From the NCBI RefSeq assembly GCF_013388255.1, contig NZ_CP058215.1, forward strand, positions 1,364,001-1,428,000: 64,000 bases of DNA. The letters are read 5' to 3'. The stretch is from Methanolobus zinderi (GTDB lineage Archaea; Halobacteriota; Methanosarcinia; Methanosarcinales; Methanosarcinaceae). Position 1 is the first letter of the stretch; the number at the start of each line of letters is the position of its first letter. Both the position numbers and the translations under genes were made by a program. The notes below the pieces were generated by a model, which was given only the letters and a program-made list of their open reading frames with translations, ran no database searches and was not told the DNA's origin. Shown piece after piece: positions 14,103 to 48,996 of the stretch.

Positions 14103-15272
14103 ATGTTAGACAAGATGATTTATCTGGACAATGCAGCAAGCACACGTCTTGACGAGAAAGTGCTTGAAGCCATGAAGCCCTATTATTTTGATATATATGC
14201 AGTAGCAACTTCCGAATTCGGATACTCTATGGGAATCGATGCCAAAGAAGCCCTCCAGGAATCCAGGCAGACAATAGCTTCTTCCATCGGAGCTTCCGCC
14301 GAAGAGATAGTTTTCACATCAGGTGATACGGAATCCAGTAATATGGCCATCAAAGGTGTTGCTGCAGCACTCCTGAACAAGAAGGATAAGCATATAATTG
14401 TTTCAAAGCTCGAGGATTTTCCGGTACTCAACACCGCCAAGGCTTTCGAGAAAAACGGGTATAAAGTAGATTATATCAGTGTTGATTCCGAGGGTATCCT
14501 TGATCTTGAAGAGCTCAAAAATGCTATTACAGAGAACACGGCCCTGGTATCCATACAACATGCTAACCAGGAGATAGGCACCTTGCAAGATATTGAGGCC
14601 ATAGCAAATATCTGCAAGGAAAAAGGAGTACTTCTGCATTCGGATGCCACCCATAGTTACACAAGGGTTCCCATAGACGTCAGTAAAGTTCCTGTTGATC
14701 TTCTGACCATGTCAGCTCACACCATACACGGTCCCAGAGGGGTCGGAGCACTATATATCAGAGAGGGCACACCCATAAACAAATGGATGGATGGTGGTTT
14801 CCAGGAATCCAACCGTCGTGCGGGTCTTGAGAATATCCCGGGTGCGGTAGGTTTTGCCAAAGCGGTCGAACTTGTTACACCTGAGGAAAATGAGTTCCTG
14901 AAATCCCTCAGAGATCATATCATAAAGAGAGCCGAGGAAGAGATCCCTGATGTTACACTGAACGGCAGTCGTAGCCAGAGAGTACCGCACAATGCCAATA
15001 TAACATTCCATTACGTGGAAGGGGAATCCATGACACTCCACCTTGATATGCGTGGATTTGCTGTAAGTACCGGTTCTGCATGTTTTAGCCGCTCCCTTGA
15101 AGCAAGCCATGTGATACTCGGTATCGGAGGAGATCACGAAAGGGCACATGGATCACTGCGCTTTACCTTTGGAAGGTACAACACTAAAGAGGACGTCGAT
15201 GCGATAATCGATGCTGTCGGTGAAATCGTGGAACAGCTCAGGGCAATCAGCCCGTTATATGAAAAGAAATAA
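14103..15272 (+). CDS. IscS/NifS-like protein lacking the PLP lysine
   Basis: A 389-residue class-V aminotransferase-fold protein, overall clearly a cysteine desulfurase homologue (YLDNAAST, FTSGDTESSNMAIKG, HANQEIG, HSDATHS). The persulfide Cys is kept (C327 in STGSACFSRSLE). However, the segment that normally reads SAHK is SAHT (T207), so the lysine that forms the PLP aldimine is missing. The usual EH dipeptide near residue 104 is ED. Archaeoglobus fulgidus IscS is a known precedent: it also lacks this lysine, is not an active desulfurase and instead supplies a Cys ligand to the cluster on IscU. The gene lies directly before an IscU-like gene, matching such a complex role. Confidence 0.9.
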   Translation: MLDKMIYLDNAASTRLDEKVLEAMKPYYFDIYAVATSEFGYSMGIDAKEALQESRQTIASSIGASAEEIVFTSGDTESSNMAIKGVAAALLNKKDKHIIVSKLEDFPVLNTAKAFEKNGYKVDYISVDSEGILDLEELKNAITENTALVSIQHANQEIGTLQDIEAIANICKEKGVLLHSDATHSYTRVPIDVSKVPVDLLTMSAHTIHGPRGVGALYIREGTPINKWMDGGFQESNRRAGLENIPGAVGFAKAVELVTPEENEFLKSLRDHIIKRAEEEIPDVTLNGSRSQRVPHNANITFHYVEGESMTLHLDMRGFAVSTGSACFSRSLEASHVILGIGGDHERAHGSLRFTFGRYNTKEDVDAIIDAVGEIVEQLRAISPLYEKK

Positions 15273-15304
15273 AATTGTAATAATATAAACATCGAGATGA
15301 TAAA

Positions 15305-15940
15305 ATGAAGTTTCCATACAGCAAAAAGGTTCTTGAACATTTCCAGAATCCGAGAAACGTAGGAAAAATGGAAGATGCAGATGGAAAAGGGCTGGAAGGC
15401 AGCCCGGCCTGTGGTGACATGGTGGCAGTGTACCTGAAAGTAAATGAAGATACAAAGGTCATCGAGGATGTGAAATTCGAATCCTATGGATGTGCTTCCA
15501 ACATTGCAACCGCTTCGATAATAACAGAACTTGCCAAGGGCAAGACTCTGGAAGAAGCCAAGAACATATCATGGAAACAGGCCACAGAAGAGCTTGGTGG
15601 CCTTCCACCTGTAAAAGCCCACTGTTCAGTGCTTGCTGTCGAAGGCTTAAGGGCCGCCATAAGGGATTATGAGGAAAAGCACGGTCTTGTAAGTGCCAAG
15701 GAACCGACAACGGAAAATGTTGTCCGAAGCCGCCTCAAGCATGTTATGAACCCCATGGCCGGACTTGATATTGTCCGGACCGAACTGGTGACCAAGATCG
15801 ATGTTGAGGACGGTAATGTCCGCATCCTCCTTGATCTGCCTTCAAACCATCAGTTTGCTGCGGCCATCAAAGAGGATATCCTTGAAAAGATCGAATCACT
15901 GTGGGATGTTAAAGAAGTAAAGGTAGTCTTTACAGAGTGA
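15305..15940 (+). CDS. IscU-type Fe-S scaffold fused to a DUF59/MIP18-like domain
   Basis: A 211-residue protein. Residues 1-125 are IscU/NifU-N, with the three cluster ligands Cys36 (SPACGD), Cys63 (YGCAS) and Cys107 (AHCSVL) plus Asp38, so it should build [2Fe-2S]/[4Fe-4S] clusters. Residues 135-211 (RLKHVMNPMAGLDIVRTELV onwards) resemble the DUF59/MIP18 family used in Fe-S maturation, not the CxxC-bearing Nfu domain. The gene is 32 bases after the IscS-like gene and overlaps the DUF2284 gene. The IscU call is firm; the C-terminal assignment is by pattern. Confidence 0.9.
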   Translation: MKFPYSKKVLEHFQNPRNVGKMEDADGKGLEGSPACGDMVAVYLKVNEDTKVIEDVKFESYGCASNIATASIITELAKGKTLEEAKNISWKQATEELGGLPPVKAHCSVLAVEGLRAAIRDYEEKHGLVSAKEPTTENVVRSRLKHVMNPMAGLDIVRTELVTKIDVEDGNVRILLDLPSNHQFAAAIKEDILEKIESLWDVKEVKVVFTE

Positions 15941-16506
15941 AACAGGATATTTCCATACAGGAAGCGAAAAAGATCCGTAGTTCGCAGGAAATAATTGACA
16001 GGGCCGAAAAGCTCGGCCTTGAAACTTACATTCTGGATGCTTCTGATATCCCTGTCGAGGACAGGGGCAGACTGAAATGCGCCTACGGATGCAGGGGATA
16101 TGGCAAACGACTCAGTTGCCCTCCCCATACTATTTCTATTAATGAGTTCAGACGCATATTACAAGAATACAGCACTGCTATTTTACTGATCGAAGAATTC
16201 GATATGTCTGATGAAGAAGATATTCTCAAAGCCTGGTCAAGGCTAAGAAAACCGAGTTTCCATAAAATGCTTGAACTGGAATATGAGGCTTTCAGAAAGG
16301 GTTTCACCTATGCACAACTGCTGCGGCCTGGTGCATGCAATGAGTGTGATACCTGTGCGGATAAGTGTATAAAGCCCGAAGTCAGACGTTTTCCACCGGA
16401 GGCTGTGGGAATTAACCTGATTAAACTAACTGAAAAGCTTGGATTAGACATCAGGTTCTGTGATCCAAAACACGTCAAATGTGTGGGGATATTGCTGCTT
16501 GAATGA
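15937..16506 (+). CDS. DUF2284 cysteine-rich metal-binding protein
   Basis: A 189-residue protein with the DUF2284 layout: CAYGCRGYGKRLSCPP near the N-terminus (about residues 47-62), and a ferredoxin-like CNECDTCADKC with C-terminal KCVG. The cysteines probably bind Fe-S or another metal. It starts with GTG overlapping the preceding stop by four bases, so it belongs to the sulfur operon. The function of the family is not established. Confidence 0.85.
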   Translation: MKQDISIQEAKKIRSSQEIIDRAEKLGLETYILDASDIPVEDRGRLKCAYGCRGYGKRLSCPPHTISINEFRRILQEYSTAILLIEEFDMSDEEDILKAWSRLRKPSFHKMLELEYEAFRKGFTYAQLLRPGACNECDTCADKCIKPEVRRFPPEAVGINLIKLTEKLGLDIRFCDPKHVKCVGILLLE

Positions 16507-43842: not shown

Positions 43843-43985
43843 AGAAATATGTGAATCATTATAGTGAAGTAAACTTCATAGTTTTGGATTTATATCTATT
43901 GTTACATATAACGTTGTGAAAAAATTATTTATAAAAACGATTCATTTATTTATTAGTACAATGACTGCTGTTAAGGTGTAAATAA

Positions 43986-44654
43986 ATGGATTATAAGTTC
44001 CGTTCTGCATGTATCAGGAAATTGACAAAATCATTTAGTTCAGAACTTATAGATGAAATTAAAAAACACTCTTTTTCTCCATCAGATAGCAAAGATGGTT
44101 TTGTTCTTCTAGAATCTTCAAATGATGTTTTTCTTTTTCAGTACCTTAGAAAAATTAACTATACGTATGGGGATTTTCAAGGAGAGCTTATACAGAGGAA
44201 AGGAGAAACTATTAAAGACCATATTTTCGAAATTAATTTAGACAGTATGTTGTTAATTATATATGCTGGAAAATCACAAAGCGATTTTTTAGTTAGAAAA
44301 CTAGAGAATATTTGCGGTAACTCTTTCATCTCGGTTGAAATAGAATTTGCTAAAATTCTAGAAATCATGAAAAAATCTACATTTATTAGTAGAATGGAGC
44401 AAGTTGAACTTAAAAACTTTCAATGTAACAGTTCATTGGTAGGAAGATATATACCTAATGTCTATGATTACGAATTATTCAAAGATATAATTGAAAAATA
44501 TTGCAATAACTTGTTAAAAGTTACATTGTCGTTTGAAAGTTACCAGGGTGATACAATCACTCTTACTATTGGCAAAGACAGTTCTTTTTTATTTAGATCT
44601 TATTCTGAAAACAATTCTAAAATTTTAACATATGTGTTGTCTAATTTATTATGA
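43986..44654 (+). CDS. hypothetical protein, first gene of an AT-rich three-gene operon
   Basis: A 222-residue protein of unknown family, AT-rich in codon use compared with the neighbouring housekeeping genes. The middle (GDFQGELIQRKGETIKDHIF, then a strand IFEINLDSMLLIIYAG) and the order of strands and helices resemble part of the third gene (46000-46450), so the two may share a fold. It is followed by gene 2 after nine bases. The context suggests a mobile defence-type operon. Confidence 0.6.
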   Translation: MDYKFRSACIRKLTKSFSSELIDEIKKHSFSPSDSKDGFVLLESSNDVFLFQYLRKINYTYGDFQGELIQRKGETIKDHIFEINLDSMLLIIYAGKSQSDFLVRKLENICGNSFISVEIEFAKILEIMKKSTFISRMEQVELKNFQCNSSLVGRYIPNVYDYELFKDIIEKYCNNLLKVTLSFESYQGDTITLTIGKDSSFLFRSYSENNSKILTYVLSNLL

Positions 44655-44663
44655 GGTATTTTT

Positions 44664-45569
44664 ATGAATACGCCAATTATTAATTTGCGAGGACCAGAGG
44701 GCAAAAACATAACTGGAGAATTTGCAGAAGATGAAATCGAGGCATTTTTTTCAAATTTTGCTGGATGGAATTCAATTTATTATAATGTTGATATTGCAGT
44801 ACCAAAAGTCTCTGATGAAGAGAAATCTGAAAATAGAGGTTATGATTTTATATATGAACTTTTTGAACCACTTGAGAATATTAACCAAGGAGTAATTATT
44901 GAATCTAAAAAAATATCTGACATTTCAAACTTTACTCCTTCAATGTTAGCAAAACATATTGGGATACTCAAACATAAAGTGAAGCAAGTAATGAACTATC
45001 AAGAGTTATATGAGGATACGAAAATAAAAGCATGTAATGTCAAATCATTTAGGTATGCCATATTATGTTATCGGTTTTCGAGTTTTGATTATGATAAATA
45101 CCTACAAACACTTGAAATGTGTAAACTTGAGGAAACTATACGTGATATGAATTTTCCAACTATTTTTATTCTTTCAAATGACAGGCTTAAAGCTTTTGTA
45201 GAATTGAAAAATTACACCAAAGATTTGAAGTTTTATTCTCGTCAATTAAGATCAACAAACACATTACAAGAGTCAGATAAATTGCCTCTATTCCATTTAT
45301 TTTCCGACATCGTACCCTTTAAAAGCAAAGATGGAGATGGCATTCTTACTTTTGACAAGCCATCCGTTGAATCATTTCTATTTATTAAAGATTTTGAATC
45401 GTATTATAATATGAATTTGTCCACTATTATATTTGCAAACTGTAATTATAATGATGAACCGATTTACAATCAATACAAATCTGAAATAGAGGGCTTTGAA
45501 AATATCTCTCCTATATATTTGGGTTTTGACATGAATTGTAGTATTAATTTAAAAACGGTGTTTAAATGA
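44664..45569 (+). CDS. PD-(D/E)XK nuclease-like protein, second gene of the operon
   Basis: A 301-residue protein. Residues about 34-83 contain the arrangement of a PD-(D/E)XK nuclease core: GWNSIYYNVDIAVPK, then YDFIYEL and, on the next strand, GVIIESKKIS, so that an Asp is followed by E-x-K. Helices follow (LAKHIGILKHKVKQVMNY). Catalysis is inferred from pattern only. The gene has GAGG as ribosome-binding site and overlaps gene 3 by four bases (ATGA). Confidence 0.55.
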   Translation: MNTPIINLRGPEGKNITGEFAEDEIEAFFSNFAGWNSIYYNVDIAVPKVSDEEKSENRGYDFIYELFEPLENINQGVIIESKKISDISNFTPSMLAKHIGILKHKVKQVMNYQELYEDTKIKACNVKSFRYAILCYRFSSFDYDKYLQTLEMCKLEETIRDMNFPTIFILSNDRLKAFVELKNYTKDLKFYSRQLRSTNTLQESDKLPLFHLFSDIVPFKSKDGDGILTFDKPSVESFLFIKDFESYYNMNLSTIIFANCNYNDEPIYNQYKSEIEGFENISPIYLGFDMNCSINLKTVFK

Positions 45570-46601
45570 CTCTTAATAAGGAAAAAACATACAAACGTCA
45601 AGATGAATTGATGCTTTTTTTTAATGGTAATGATATTAGAGTTCATAATTTAGAAGAATATTTTAAATCGAGAGGTGTATTTCTATTTTCAAATACTAGA
45701 AGACCCTTGGCAACAGTTGTGTCCAAATTCATATATGGTGTTGATTCTCAAGAAAAAATAAAAAGGTATATTGGGACCAAAGCTTTTCCAACTGTATCGG
45801 GCTTTATTCTAGAACCTGAAACTAGTATTACTTTTGAAGAGCTAAACCGATATTTTAATGCAAATGTATTAAGGACTTTTGAAAACATAAGTGACAGTAA
45901 GCTTCTTTATGTGGGAGTAAAGCATGGTGTATTAGTTGGTGAAATTGAATACAGCACCACTTCTTCTAAGACATATTCCCTTTTTGAGGTTGTTACCCGA
46001 AATATCAGATTTGAAATTATTAATGAAGGAAATGTTTGCATTATTTTCACCTTTTTAGAACAAGCAATCGACTATAGTATTGTTTATGGGGTGATTAATG
46101 AAATTATCAATACTGATAGTAATATTCGTTTTAGGATAATTGAAGAAAATCTGCCTGTACTTGGAAATACAGATAAAATTCATGCTTTTTTTAAAGAATC
46201 TATTTCCAAAATTAATCCTCTTTTTGAAGTAATTGGAATTACAAACTTTTCAAGAAAAAAGGCAGATGACGGCAACACAAAAGATCTTTTTGAGATGAAT
46301 CTTTTAAGTGGAAACTTGGAGACAAAAATAACTGGAATAGATGCTTTAATTAGTAGTCTTAAAAATAGAAGTGCGAGACTTAATGGAGCTGGATTTGTTC
46401 TTCATGGAAGAGAAAATGGATATTTGTTTTTACTTAAATTAATTTCAAATGATGATAAAAAAAGAATTGAAATTGGTTTAAATGAAATAAAAAAAGTTCC
46501 TGATGGAAGTATGCTGGAATCTTTCTCTAAAAAGGAAGATTTCTATAAATTTGATTCCGCAAATGTATCGGATGAGGAAAAAAAGAGGCAGTGTCCCACA
46601 T
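45566..46601 (+). pseudogene. third operon gene, interrupted by an IS256-family element
   Basis: The intact part covers about 345 codons starting MTLNKEKTYKRQDELMLFF; the last codons before its stop at 46651 come from the insertion sequence. The protein has no recognised family. It contains segments with alternating strands and helices (GVLVGEIEY, LFEVVTRNIRFEIIN) similar in layout to gene 1. The displaced 3' end lies at 47823-47951. The original length would be about 385-395 residues. Confidence 0.65.
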
Positions 46602-47826
46602 TTGCTGTAAATTCCCTGTACCTCTATTTGTTCTTAGTCTTCCATAGATAAATATTTGTTTCCTGTGATCCACTCTTCATTGATGTCTATCAATATTGAG
46701 ACTGCAAGTCTCAATAGAGACTCTTCATTGGGGAATGCCCCAACAACCTTACTTCTTCTTTTGAGTTCCTTGTTGATTCTTTCTAAGATATTCGTATTTC
46801 TTATCTTTCTCCAATGTTCTTTTGGGAATGCTTGATAATTATGAATATCAAAGTAGAATCTTTCAAGTGTATCAATGGCCTTGTGAAACCTTCTTTCCTC
46901 AAGGAATTCAATCACTTCAGCTACCTGTTCTGGATCCTCTATAGACTTTTTTACTTTCTCCGCCACTTCTTTCTGGTGCTTTTTGGGTATAGTTTTCAAT
47001 ACAGCTCGGATCAAATGAACCTGACACATCTGCCAGCTTGATCCTGGAAATGAAGTTGTTACTGCTTTCTGGATTCCTTTATGACCATCTGAGATGATCA
47101 GTTCAACTCCTCTTAGTCCTCTTTCCTTAAGATCACTAAAGAGATCTTCCCAGAACATTGCATCTTCTCCATCTGCAATCCTTGCTCCCAGGATCTCTCT
47201 ATATCCATCTTTCCTCACACCAGCGACAACAAACAAAGCTTTGTTACTGTACTGGGTACTATCCCTTATCTTGAAGTAAGTAGCATCAACGAACAGGTAC
47301 TTGATCTCCTGCTCAATAGGTCTACATAGGAATTCGTTCACCTTCTCATCCAGTTCCTGGGATATCCTGGATACCTTCGATGCAGAAACGTTCTCAACTC
47401 CAAGCTCAGAGATGATGTGCTTTATTTTTCGTGTCGATACTCCCTGGAGATATGATTCAACAATCGCATTTTCCAATGCTTTCTCTGTTCTGGAGTATCT
47501 GTCAAAGACTTGTGTCGTAAACGGAACATCACGTAACTGAGGTTTCAGTAATTCCAGTTTGCCATGCCTGGTTGTAAAGGATCGCTTTTTGTAACCATTA
47601 CGCTGAGCTTTTCTGTTCTCGTTACGTTCATACTTCTCTGCGCCTGATTGCTGAAAGGCCTCAACTTCCATAACCTGGTTCAAGAACCAGGTTATAAGGG
47701 CTCTTATAGCATCTTCTCTATCGACAAAGTAATCTTCTAACAGGTCATATAGATTCATGGTCCTGTACCTTCTTAGTTGTGTTCACTAATTCTAAGAGGT
47801 ACGGGACTGTTATATTTTACAGAAAA
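46602..47826 (-). mobile_element. IS256-family insertion sequence
   Basis: A roughly 1.22-kb element with one transposase gene. Imperfect terminal inverted repeats can be aligned: left TGCTGTAAATTCCCTGTACC (from 46603) and the right end read inward as TTCTGTAAAATATAACAG, continuing TCCCGTACCTCT. I could not find a clean target-site duplication, so the outer boundaries are approximate to about 15 bases. It splits the third gene of the AT-rich operon. Confidence 0.8.
46634..47758 (-). CDS. IS256-family (mutator-type) transposase
   Basis: A 374-residue DDE transposase. The N-terminal region ends GYKKRSFTTRHGKLELLKPQ. The DDE core shows Asp in YLFVDATYFKIRD, Asp in ELIISDGHKGIQKAV and Glu in KIRNTNILERINKELKRR, with the C/H motif CQVHLIRAVL. 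The reading frame is full length with no stops, so the element may still be active. Confidence 0.95.
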   Translation of the reverse strand: MNLYDLLEDYFVDREDAIRALITWFLNQVMEVEAFQQSGAEKYERNENRKAQRNGYKKRSFTTRHGKLELLKPQLRDVPFTTQVFDRYSRTEKALENAIVESYLQGVSTRKIKHIISELGVENVSASKVSRISQELDEKVNEFLCRPIEQEIKYLFVDATYFKIRDSTQYSNKALFVVAGVRKDGYREILGARIADGEDAMFWEDLFSDLKERGLRGVELIISDGHKGIQKAVTTSFPGSSWQMCQVHLIRAVLKTIPKKHQKEVAEKVKKSIEDPEQVAEVIEFLEERRFHKAIDTLERFYFDIHNYQAFPKEHWRKIRNTNILERINKELKRRSKVVGAFPNEESLLRLAVSILIDINEEWITGNKYLSMED

Positions 47827-47951
47827 TTAGTTACGCTGCCAAAAAAGATGATTATGAAAAGCATTTGGGTATTAGTATCACTAGAATTCTACAACCTAAA
47901 AAGAGGAATTACAATAGTATAAAGCTAATCCATCCTATCGATCTGATATAA
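47823..47951 (+). pseudogene. displaced 3' end of the interrupted third operon gene
   Basis: An open 42-codon fragment (KISYAAKKDDYEKHLGIS, then LQPKKRNYNSIK) ending in TAA, directly outside the right end of the insertion sequence. Its codon use and AT content match the gene interrupted on the left side. Confidence 0.6.
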
Positions 47952-48918: not shown

Positions 48919-48996
48919 TGGTGCTCCGACCGGGATTCGAACCCGAGTCTTCGGCTCGAAAGGCCGGAATGATTGGCCGGACTACACTATCGGAGC
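48919..48996 (-). tRNA. tRNA-Glu (anticodon TTC), CCA encoded
   Basis: On the minus strand: acceptor GCTCCGA/TCGGAGC, discriminator A and then encoded CCA (48919-48921). The D arm is GTGTAGTCCGGCCAATCAT and the anticodon loop CTTTCGA gives TTC. T arm CGGGTTCGAATCCCG. The other two tRNAs in the window lack an encoded CCA. Confidence 0.94.

What the first reader, a model, noticed from the sequence alone, without database searches (positions are those of the whole stretch)
43986..47951. AT-rich three-gene operon with PD-(D/E)XK-like gene, a candidate new defence system, broken by an IS256 element
The genes abut or overlap, have lower GC than the flanking chromosome, match no family I recognise, and include a nuclease-like middle gene. 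The first and third proteins share a similar strand-helix layout. Such compact, horizontally acquired operons often are antiviral systems. The third gene is split by an insertion sequence but its 3' end is still readable, so an intact form can be rebuilt.
Basis: partly seen in the sequence, partly recalled or inferred. Interest (0 to 1): 0.7.

Follow-up and report, generated by a model that had tools for sequence, protein, structure and literature searches.

The report
Archaeal relative of 3HP antiphage operon
A three-gene cassette in a methane-making archaeon, its last gene clipped by a jumping gene, is a distant archaeal relative of the bacterial antiphage system "3HP"; structure models suggest it pairs a DNA-cutting enzyme with two DNA-gripping proteins shaped like RdgC and the kinetochore proteins CENP-L and CENP-N.

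Summary
In detail: three tightly packed genes (43986-46586, 29% GC in a 42% window), the third cut near its 3' end by an IS256 element (46587-47840, 8-bp target duplication). Intact copies exist in Methanolobus vulcani, Methanosarcina sp. KYL-1 and two haloarchaeal plasmids. Through the haloarchaeal bridge all three proteins are homologous to PADLOC Hp1/Hp2/Hp3, almost certainly the "3HP" system of P2-like prophages, which protects E. coli against phage P1 (Rousset 2022). Hp1 (g2) keeps a D..(D/E)xK nuclease motif and matches GapS4a. AlphaFold models add something I found nowhere in the literature held: g1 (Hp3) folds like the ring-forming DNA-binding protein RdgC and CENP-L; g3 (Hp2) is a helical domain plus a domain of the same layout, best matching CENP-N/Chl4. 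Favoured mechanism: an Hp2-Hp3 DNA clamp delivers or gates the Hp1 nuclease. Family placement is strong, folds moderate to good, mechanism inferred. The window's copy lacks the native last ~26 residues of g3 and may be inactive.

The parts
43928..43937 (+). TTTATAAAAA, possible archaeal TATA-like promoter element upstream of the operon
   Evidence: Read from sequence; inference only, no expression data
43986..44654 (+). g1, 222 aa, Hp3-type protein (phrog_5850 kind); predicted RdgC/CENP-L fold
   Evidence: Orthologues 34-38% in M. vulcani/Methanosarcina; hhalign to haloarchaeal g1 2.4e-5, which matches bacterial Hp3 at 3.8e-13; AF2 pLDDT 84, pTM 0.80; Foldseek RdgC 2owl 1.9e-7, CENP-L 5.9e-4
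44664..45569 (+). g2, 301 aa, Hp1/GapS4a-type PD-(D/E)XK nuclease candidate; motif D61 ... E80-x-K82
   Evidence: NF047933 GapS4a 4.5e-9, 36 bits, below cut-off 270; hhalign to haloarchaeal g2 3.9e-10, which matches bacterial Hp1 at 5.2e-17; motif aligned in meth/halo/bacterial members
45566..46586 (+). g3, native 5' part (about 340 codons), Hp2-type protein (phrog_6531 kind); N-terminal helical domain plus RdgC/CENP-N-like domain
   Evidence: Bacterial-only profile finds it at 1.2e-5, fifth of 317 archaeal ORFs behind the four other g3s; hhalign meth vs bacterial g3 1.4e-8; AF2 of the M. vulcani orthologue pLDDT 76, pTM 0.74; Foldseek CENP-N/Chl4 3-5e-4, prob 1.00
46579..46586 (.). target-site duplication AAAAAAGA, left copy
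46587..47840 (.). IS256-family insertion sequence, 1254 bp, interrupts g3
   Evidence: Inverted ends 20/28 and 8-bp TSD; transposase family
46634..47758 (-). IS256 transposase, 374 aa
   Evidence: NF033543 1.4e-106, PF00872 2.4e-113
47841..47848 (.). target-site duplication AAAAAAGA, right copy
47842..47922 (+). g3 3' remnant (last about 26 codons and stop), separated from the rest by the IS
   Evidence: In-frame translation, resembles the C-terminus of orthologues (A10)
48919..48996 (-). tRNA-Glu at which synteny with four congeners stops; the operon side is variable

Best explanation
The operon is an archaeal member of the 3HP antiphage superfamily, carried by horizontal transfer and now damaged in its last gene. 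g2 (Hp1) is a PD-(D/E)XK nuclease. g1 (Hp3) and g3 (Hp2) are two RdgC/CENP-L/N-fold proteins that, by analogy with the RdgC ring dimer and the CENP-L-CENP-N (Iml3-Chl4) heterodimer, most likely form a heterodimeric clamp on double-stranded DNA. The clamp would recognise or be loaded on a feature of invading DNA (ends, recombination or replication intermediates) and place or switch on the nuclease, which cuts that DNA. Shown here: the operon, its homology to Hp1-3, conservation of the nuclease motif. Supported by models: the RdgC-like folds of g1 and g3. Inferred: heterodimer, DNA clamping, the trigger, the cutting, and activity of the archaeal form. The window's own copy has lost the native end of g3 and may not work.
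For: Three-gene cassette conserved in 5 archaea (order g1-g2-g3) and in 42 partly redundant bacterial/phage loci (order g2-g3-g1), tightly packed throughout. Bacterial-only profiles rank the five archaeal g1s and the five archaeal g3s first among 317 archaeal ORFs. hhalign: every same-gene link is significant directly or via haloarchaea, cross-gene pairs never below E 0.06. Bacterial members match PADLOC Hp1 5e-63, Hp2 2e-39, Hp3 4e-23 and sit in the portal/replication-gene hotspot of P2-like phages, where Rousset et al. describe a three-gene system without clear domains that protects against P1 (PMC9122126). GapS4a 4.5e-9 for g2. g1 model matches RdgC 1.9e-7 and CENP-L, and phage RdgC proteins; g3 model matches CENP-N/Chl4 first; a g1 homologue in Pseudomonas phage 54-4 is annotated 'RdgC-like exonuclease'. 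RdgC, lambda RexA and Iml3/Chl4 share this fold and bind DNA (PMC11077077; PMC4080450). g2 and g3 profiles hit the same genomes in Halobacteriota apart from one distant copy found only with the GapS4a model and one spurious hit. Relatives lie near CBASS-type E1/E2/JAB and Septu-like genes.
Against: Window proteins do not hit PADLOC models at all, so membership rests on chaining. Direct meth-to-bacterial g2 comparison is not significant. TM-scores are modest (g1 about 0.5, g3 0.2-0.3) and g3 confidence is only 76, with a weak N-terminal domain. No RdgC in the top 50 for g3. Equating PADLOC Hp1-3 with Rousset's 3HP rests on name, gene number and location. No archaeal virus data. No defence island seen in the window.
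Confidence: 0.6

Rival explanations
1. It is an archaeal GAPS4-type system: a GapS4a nuclease with a partner, g1 being an accessory.
For: g2 hits GapS4a directly (4.5e-9 and 3.6e-8 for M. vulcani) while not hitting PADLOC Hp1; Pantoea/Ewingella two-gene loci have the same g2-then-partner order.
Against: 36 bits against a cut-off of 270; the partner protein of the two-gene loci shows no significant similarity to methanogen g3 (hhalign E 0.096) and only a weak one to bacterial Hp2 (0.0097); g1 and g3 do match Hp3 and Hp2.
Confidence: 0.15
2. RexAB-like or RdgC-like recombination control: g1/g3 antagonise RecA/RadA-type recombination or alter host/invader DNA, and the nuclease motif is a relic or works in repair.
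For: RdgC inhibits RecA and lambda RexA is an RdgC-fold exclusion protein; the fold match is to RdgC first for g1.
Against: The D..(D/E)xK motif is kept in all 3HP-type members across bacteria and archaea; the operon is patchy and mobile (plasmids, prophages, filamentous phage), unlike housekeeping repair.
Confidence: 0.1
3. A toxin-antitoxin or abortive-infection module in which g2 is a nonspecific nuclease held in check by the g1/g3 pair until infection.
For: Tight gene packing and plasmid location fit; nothing here excludes self-DNA degradation as the outcome.
Against: No direct evidence; whether 3HP kills the host was not found in the paper passages read.
Confidence: 0.15

Closest known systems
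3HP (Rst_3HP; PADLOC Hp1-Hp2-Hp3), P2-hotspot antiphage system
   Same: Three genes, each homologous protein by protein through profile chaining; same sizes (about 300-335, 350-430, 225 aa); overlapping genes; mobile distribution
   Different: Gene order permuted (Hp3-Hp1-Hp2); archaeal; too divergent for PADLOC models; chromosomal beside tRNA-Glu rather than in a P2-like prophage; g3 broken by IS256
GAPS4 (GapS4a, NCBIfam NF047933)
   Same: g2 belongs to the same wider nuclease family (E 4.5e-9)
   Different: Far under the family cut-off; partner protein not demonstrably related; extra gene g1
RdgC (E. coli, 2owl/2owy)
   Same: Predicted fold of g1 (Foldseek 1.9e-7)
   Different: g1 is about 80 residues shorter; about 10% identity; encoded beside a nuclease and a second protein of similar layout
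CENP-L / CENP-N (Iml3 / Chl4) heterodimer of the inner kinetochore
   Same: g1 resembles CENP-L and g3 resembles CENP-N, i.e. look-alikes of both halves of the pair are in one operon; g3 also has an extra N-terminal helical domain
   Different: Similarity in structure models only; whether the helical domain is like the pyrin domain of CENP-N was not tested; no kinetochore role implied
lambda RexA
   Same: RdgC-fold DNA-binding protein used for phage exclusion (PMC11077077)
   Different: Partner RexB is a membrane protein (own knowledge), no nuclease; no sequence relation seen here

Membership tests
3HP | Three adjacent genes Hp1, Hp2, Hp3 | tested here: met
   g1-g2-g3 all present and adjacent in 5 archaea; order differs from bacteria
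3HP | Direct match to PADLOC Hp1/Hp2/Hp3 models | tested here: not met
   Window: none at E 10; of the archaeal proteins tried only Natronorubrum g2 hits Hp1, 3.1e-6. Probably a sensitivity limit, since bacterial-only profiles built here do find g1 and g3
3HP | Homology of each protein to Hp1-3 by profile comparison | tested here: met
   Via haloarchaeal bridge: g1 2.4e-5 then 3.8e-13; g2 3.9e-10 then 5.2e-17; g3 direct 1.4e-8
3HP | Order Hp1-Hp2-Hp3 (seen in all complete bacterial loci here) | tested here: not met
   All archaeal copies are Hp3-Hp1-Hp2; hence filed as a variant of the superfamily, not as canonical 3HP
3HP | Antiphage activity (P1 in E. coli) | not testable with these tools
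   Reported for an E. coli member in PMC9122126; no data for archaeal forms
GAPS4 | GapS4a score above NCBIfam cut-off of 270 bits | tested here: not met
   36 bits; Pantoea/Ewingella positives 291-295 bits
GAPS4 | Two-gene operon with GapS4b partner | tested here: not met
   Partner of Pantoea/Ewingella loci vs methanogen g3: E 0.096
PD-(D/E)XK nucleases | D ... (D/E)-x-K motif | tested here: met
   D61, E80, K82 aligned with D/E/K in haloarchaeal and D/D/K in bacterial members
PD-(D/E)XK nucleases | PD-(D/E)XK core fold | not tested
RdgC | RdgC fold | tested here: met
   Foldseek 1.9e-7, prob 1.00, TM about 0.5 for the g1 model
RdgC | Pfam RdgC sequence family | tested here: not met
   No RdgC Pfam hit for g1 or its relatives
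RdgC | Ring dimer encircling DNA | not testable with these tools

The most novel reading that the evidence does not exclude
3HP-type operons encode a prokaryotic CENP-L/CENP-N-like heterodimer (Hp3 = CENP-L/RdgC-like, Hp2 = CENP-N-like with an extra N-terminal helical domain) that clamps DNA for a nuclease. The archaeal versions, including this one, would then mark a route by which the eukaryotic inner-kinetochore CENP-LN pair descends from a mobile antiviral or DNA-clamp module.
Probability: 0.2. Interest if true: 0.88.

Novelty: new variant of a known kind. Interest (0 to 1): 0.58.

Why it matters
3HP was reported as three genes without clear domains. The result gives it a concrete, testable mechanism (nuclease plus RdgC/CENP-LN-like DNA clamp), extends it to methanogens and haloarchaea that PADLOC models miss, and links it to the GapS4a nuclease family. 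If the two-protein CENP-L/N resemblance holds in an experimental structure, it bears on where that inner-kinetochore pair came from.

Tried and rejected
Direct family scans of the window proteins (Pfam, PADLOC, PHROGs, NCBIfam) gave nothing but GapS4a for g2. A protein-level scan of genome contigs with g2 alone found nothing; only the three-sequence alignment reached M. vulcani and Methanosarcina KYL-1. Plasmid tblastn with the window g2 was empty; the haloarchaeal relative was needed as a bridge. The weak profile hit in G168 (L006) was rejected: no operon there and an unrelated protein. Weak Pfam hits (MC7, HIGH_NTase1, Herpes_U15, DOT1, Pro_isomerase) were treated as noise because they are not shared by orthologues. 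PDB sequence searches gave nothing convincing. Sequence similarity between g1 and g3 was tested and not found; only the models show the shared layout (1 of 5000 shuffles of element order reaches it; a crude test). A defence island in the window was looked for and not seen among the ORFs read.
Full report
OBSERVATION. Three ORFs on the + strand (43986-44654, 44664-45569, 45566-46651) are packed with gaps of +9 and -4 bp. The operon has 28.9% GC against 41.8% for the window; only 3 of 614 windows of that size are as low. The third gene is interrupted by a single-copy IS256 element, 46587-47840, with inverted ends (20 of 28 bases) and a perfect 8-bp duplication AAAAAAGA. The insertion falls near codon 338 of g3; the native end continues in frame at 47842-47922. 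The ORF as it stands reads about 20 codons into the IS.

ARCHAEAL RELATIVES. The genome is a genus-mate of Methanolobus vulcani. Of 27 genomes of the genus searched only this one and M. vulcani PL 12/M carry g2; Methanosarcina sp. KYL-1 has a third copy. All are three-gene operons in the same order, 40-47% (g2), 34-38% (g1) and 32-38% (g3) identical to the window proteins. The GapS4a model led to a further copy on a plasmid of Halobacterium sp. DL1, and a plasmid of Natronorubrum daqingense has another. In samples of Halobacteriota genomes the g2 and g3 profiles hit the same genomes, apart from the distant Halobacterium g2, which only the GapS4a model found, and one spurious g2 hit. Synteny with four congeners stops at the tRNA-Glu at 48919-48996, so the operon side is variable.

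LINK TO A KNOWN SYSTEM. The haloarchaeal g2 found bacterial plasmid loci: Aliarcobacter and Pseudomonas nitroreducens with three genes in the order g2-g3-(g1-sized gene), and Pantoea and Ewingella with two genes. The Aliarcobacter and Pseudomonas proteins match PADLOC Hp1 (5e-63, 4e-64), Hp2 (5e-30, 2e-39) and Hp3 (6e-8, 4e-23), and PHROG families 6531 (g3) and 5850 (g1) of unknown function. More copies are in P2-like prophages of E. coli and Klebsiella, a filamentous Pseudomonas phage and Vibrio prophages. The E. coli and Klebsiella copies sit between the portal and replication genes, the hotspot in which Rousset et al. [quoted passage not shown] DefenseFinder lists Rst_3HP and finds it mostly in prophages (PMC9090908). 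That PADLOC Hp1-3 are this system is my inference from name, gene number and location.

IS THE ARCHAEAL OPERON REALLY 3HP? The window proteins miss the PADLOC models altogether, so I tested homology independently. Profiles built from bacterial members only, run against all 317 ORFs of five archaeal loci, rank the five archaeal g1s first (window E 0.013; best other ORF 0.44) and the five archaeal g3s first (window 1.2e-5; best other ORF 0.38). For g2 they find the haloarchaeal ones (2e-23, 4e-22) but not the methanogen ones. Profile-profile comparison: g1 meth-halo 2.4e-5, halo-bacteria 3.8e-13; g2 meth-halo 3.9e-10, halo-bacteria 5.2e-17; g3 meth-bacteria 1.4e-8, halo-bacteria 3.4e-13. Every comparison of different genes gave E above 0.06. 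Gene order is Hp3-Hp1-Hp2 in all archaeal copies and Hp1-Hp2-Hp3 in all 42 complete bacterial/phage loci (partly redundant). So it is the same gene set, permuted.

NUCLEASE. g2 matches GapS4a (4.5e-9) but at 36 bits against a cut-off of 270, whereas the Pantoea/Ewingella proteins pass it (291-295 bits). The motif D61 ... E80-x-K82 aligns with D/E/K in haloarchaea and D/D/K in bacterial Hp1. The partner of the two-gene loci is not demonstrably Hp2 (E 0.0097-0.096), so GAPS4 and 3HP share the nuclease family but a merger is unproven.

FOLDS OF g1 AND g3. g1 (window sequence, 14-sequence alignment) models at pLDDT 84, pTM 0.80; the best solved structures are RdgC (1.9e-7, prob 1.00) followed by human CENP-L (5.9e-4) and, lower down, CENP-N. 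The best named viral matches include phage RdgC proteins. g3 (M. vulcani sequence) models at pLDDT 76, pTM 0.74 with an N-terminal helical domain and then the same order of strands and helices as g1; its best matches are human CENP-N and yeast Chl4 (3-5e-4, prob 1.00). The element order of the two models agrees better than all but 1 of 5000 shuffles, though this is a coarse test. TM-scores are modest. That Iml3/Chl4 (CENP-L/N) resemble RdgC is known (PMC4080450), as is the RdgC fold of the phage-exclusion protein RexA (PMC11077077). One g1 homologue was already annotated 'RdgC-like exonuclease' by the depositors of a Pseudomonas phage. I found no paper in the library linking 3HP to this fold; the library is incomplete. 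An unrelated archaeal/bacterial operon pairs an RdgC-like protein with a histone (PMC11390915).

MECHANISM. RdgC binds DNA as a ring dimer, and Iml3-Chl4 is a horseshoe heterodimer lying on DNA. With two such proteins beside a nuclease, the simplest reading is an Hp2-Hp3 DNA clamp that recruits or gates Hp1. The haloarchaeal Hp2 proteins carry a C-terminal helix-hairpin-helix (1.3e-5 in Halobacterium; for Natronorubrum), which also points to DNA. The trigger and whether the host survives are unknown. The IS removes the part of g3 that corresponds to the last predicted helix (residues 337-367 in the M. vulcani model), so the window's copy may be inactive.

CONTEXT. No defence genes were noticed next to the operon in the window. 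The Methanosarcina copy lies about 3 kb from genes matching CBASS-type E1, E2 and JAB models; the Aliarcobacter copy is next to a Septu-like ATPase/HNH pair; the E. coli and Klebsiella copies are in a P2 defence hotspot.

VERDICT. Placement in the 3HP superfamily about 0.9; RdgC-like fold of g1 about 0.85 and of g3 about 0.65; clamp-plus-nuclease mechanism about 0.5-0.6. The operon is a new archaeal variant of a known kind; the fold assignment is the interesting part.

Noticed in passing
L007:1650-4894 (Methanosarcina sp. KYL-1, G356 C15): E1 (ThiF), JAB and E2-like genes matching PADLOC CBASS-type models lie about 3 kb from the intact 3HP-like operon; a tail-sheath-like gene of a contractile apparatus is also near (14782-16236).
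   Followed up: partly
window 48919-48996: tRNA-Glu marks a sharp synteny break: sequence to its right is 73-82% identical in four congeners, sequence to its left is unrelated. Possible integration hotspot.
   Followed up: partly
L014:10663-11964 and L016:7001-8302: Haloarchaeal Hp2 homologues carry an extra C-terminal helix-hairpin-helix domain, not detected in the methanogen and bacterial members scanned.
   Followed up: no
L021 (Pseudomonas phage 54-4, OR621021): A filamentous (Pf-type) phage genome of 13 kb carries a full three-gene 3HP operon next to its repressor/excisionase.
   Followed up: no
L045-L047, L049-L053 (viral contigs): Hp1 and weak Hp3 homologues separated by about 1.2-1.35 kb, room for an Hp2 too divergent to be detected: perhaps a further branch of the family.
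   Followed up: no
L019:6001-8077 and L020:6001-8074: Two-gene GapS4a loci on Pantoea and Ewingella plasmids; in these the acidic residue of the (D/E)xK motif aligns with serine (VVVSAK), so their catalytic motif may be arranged differently.
   Followed up: partly
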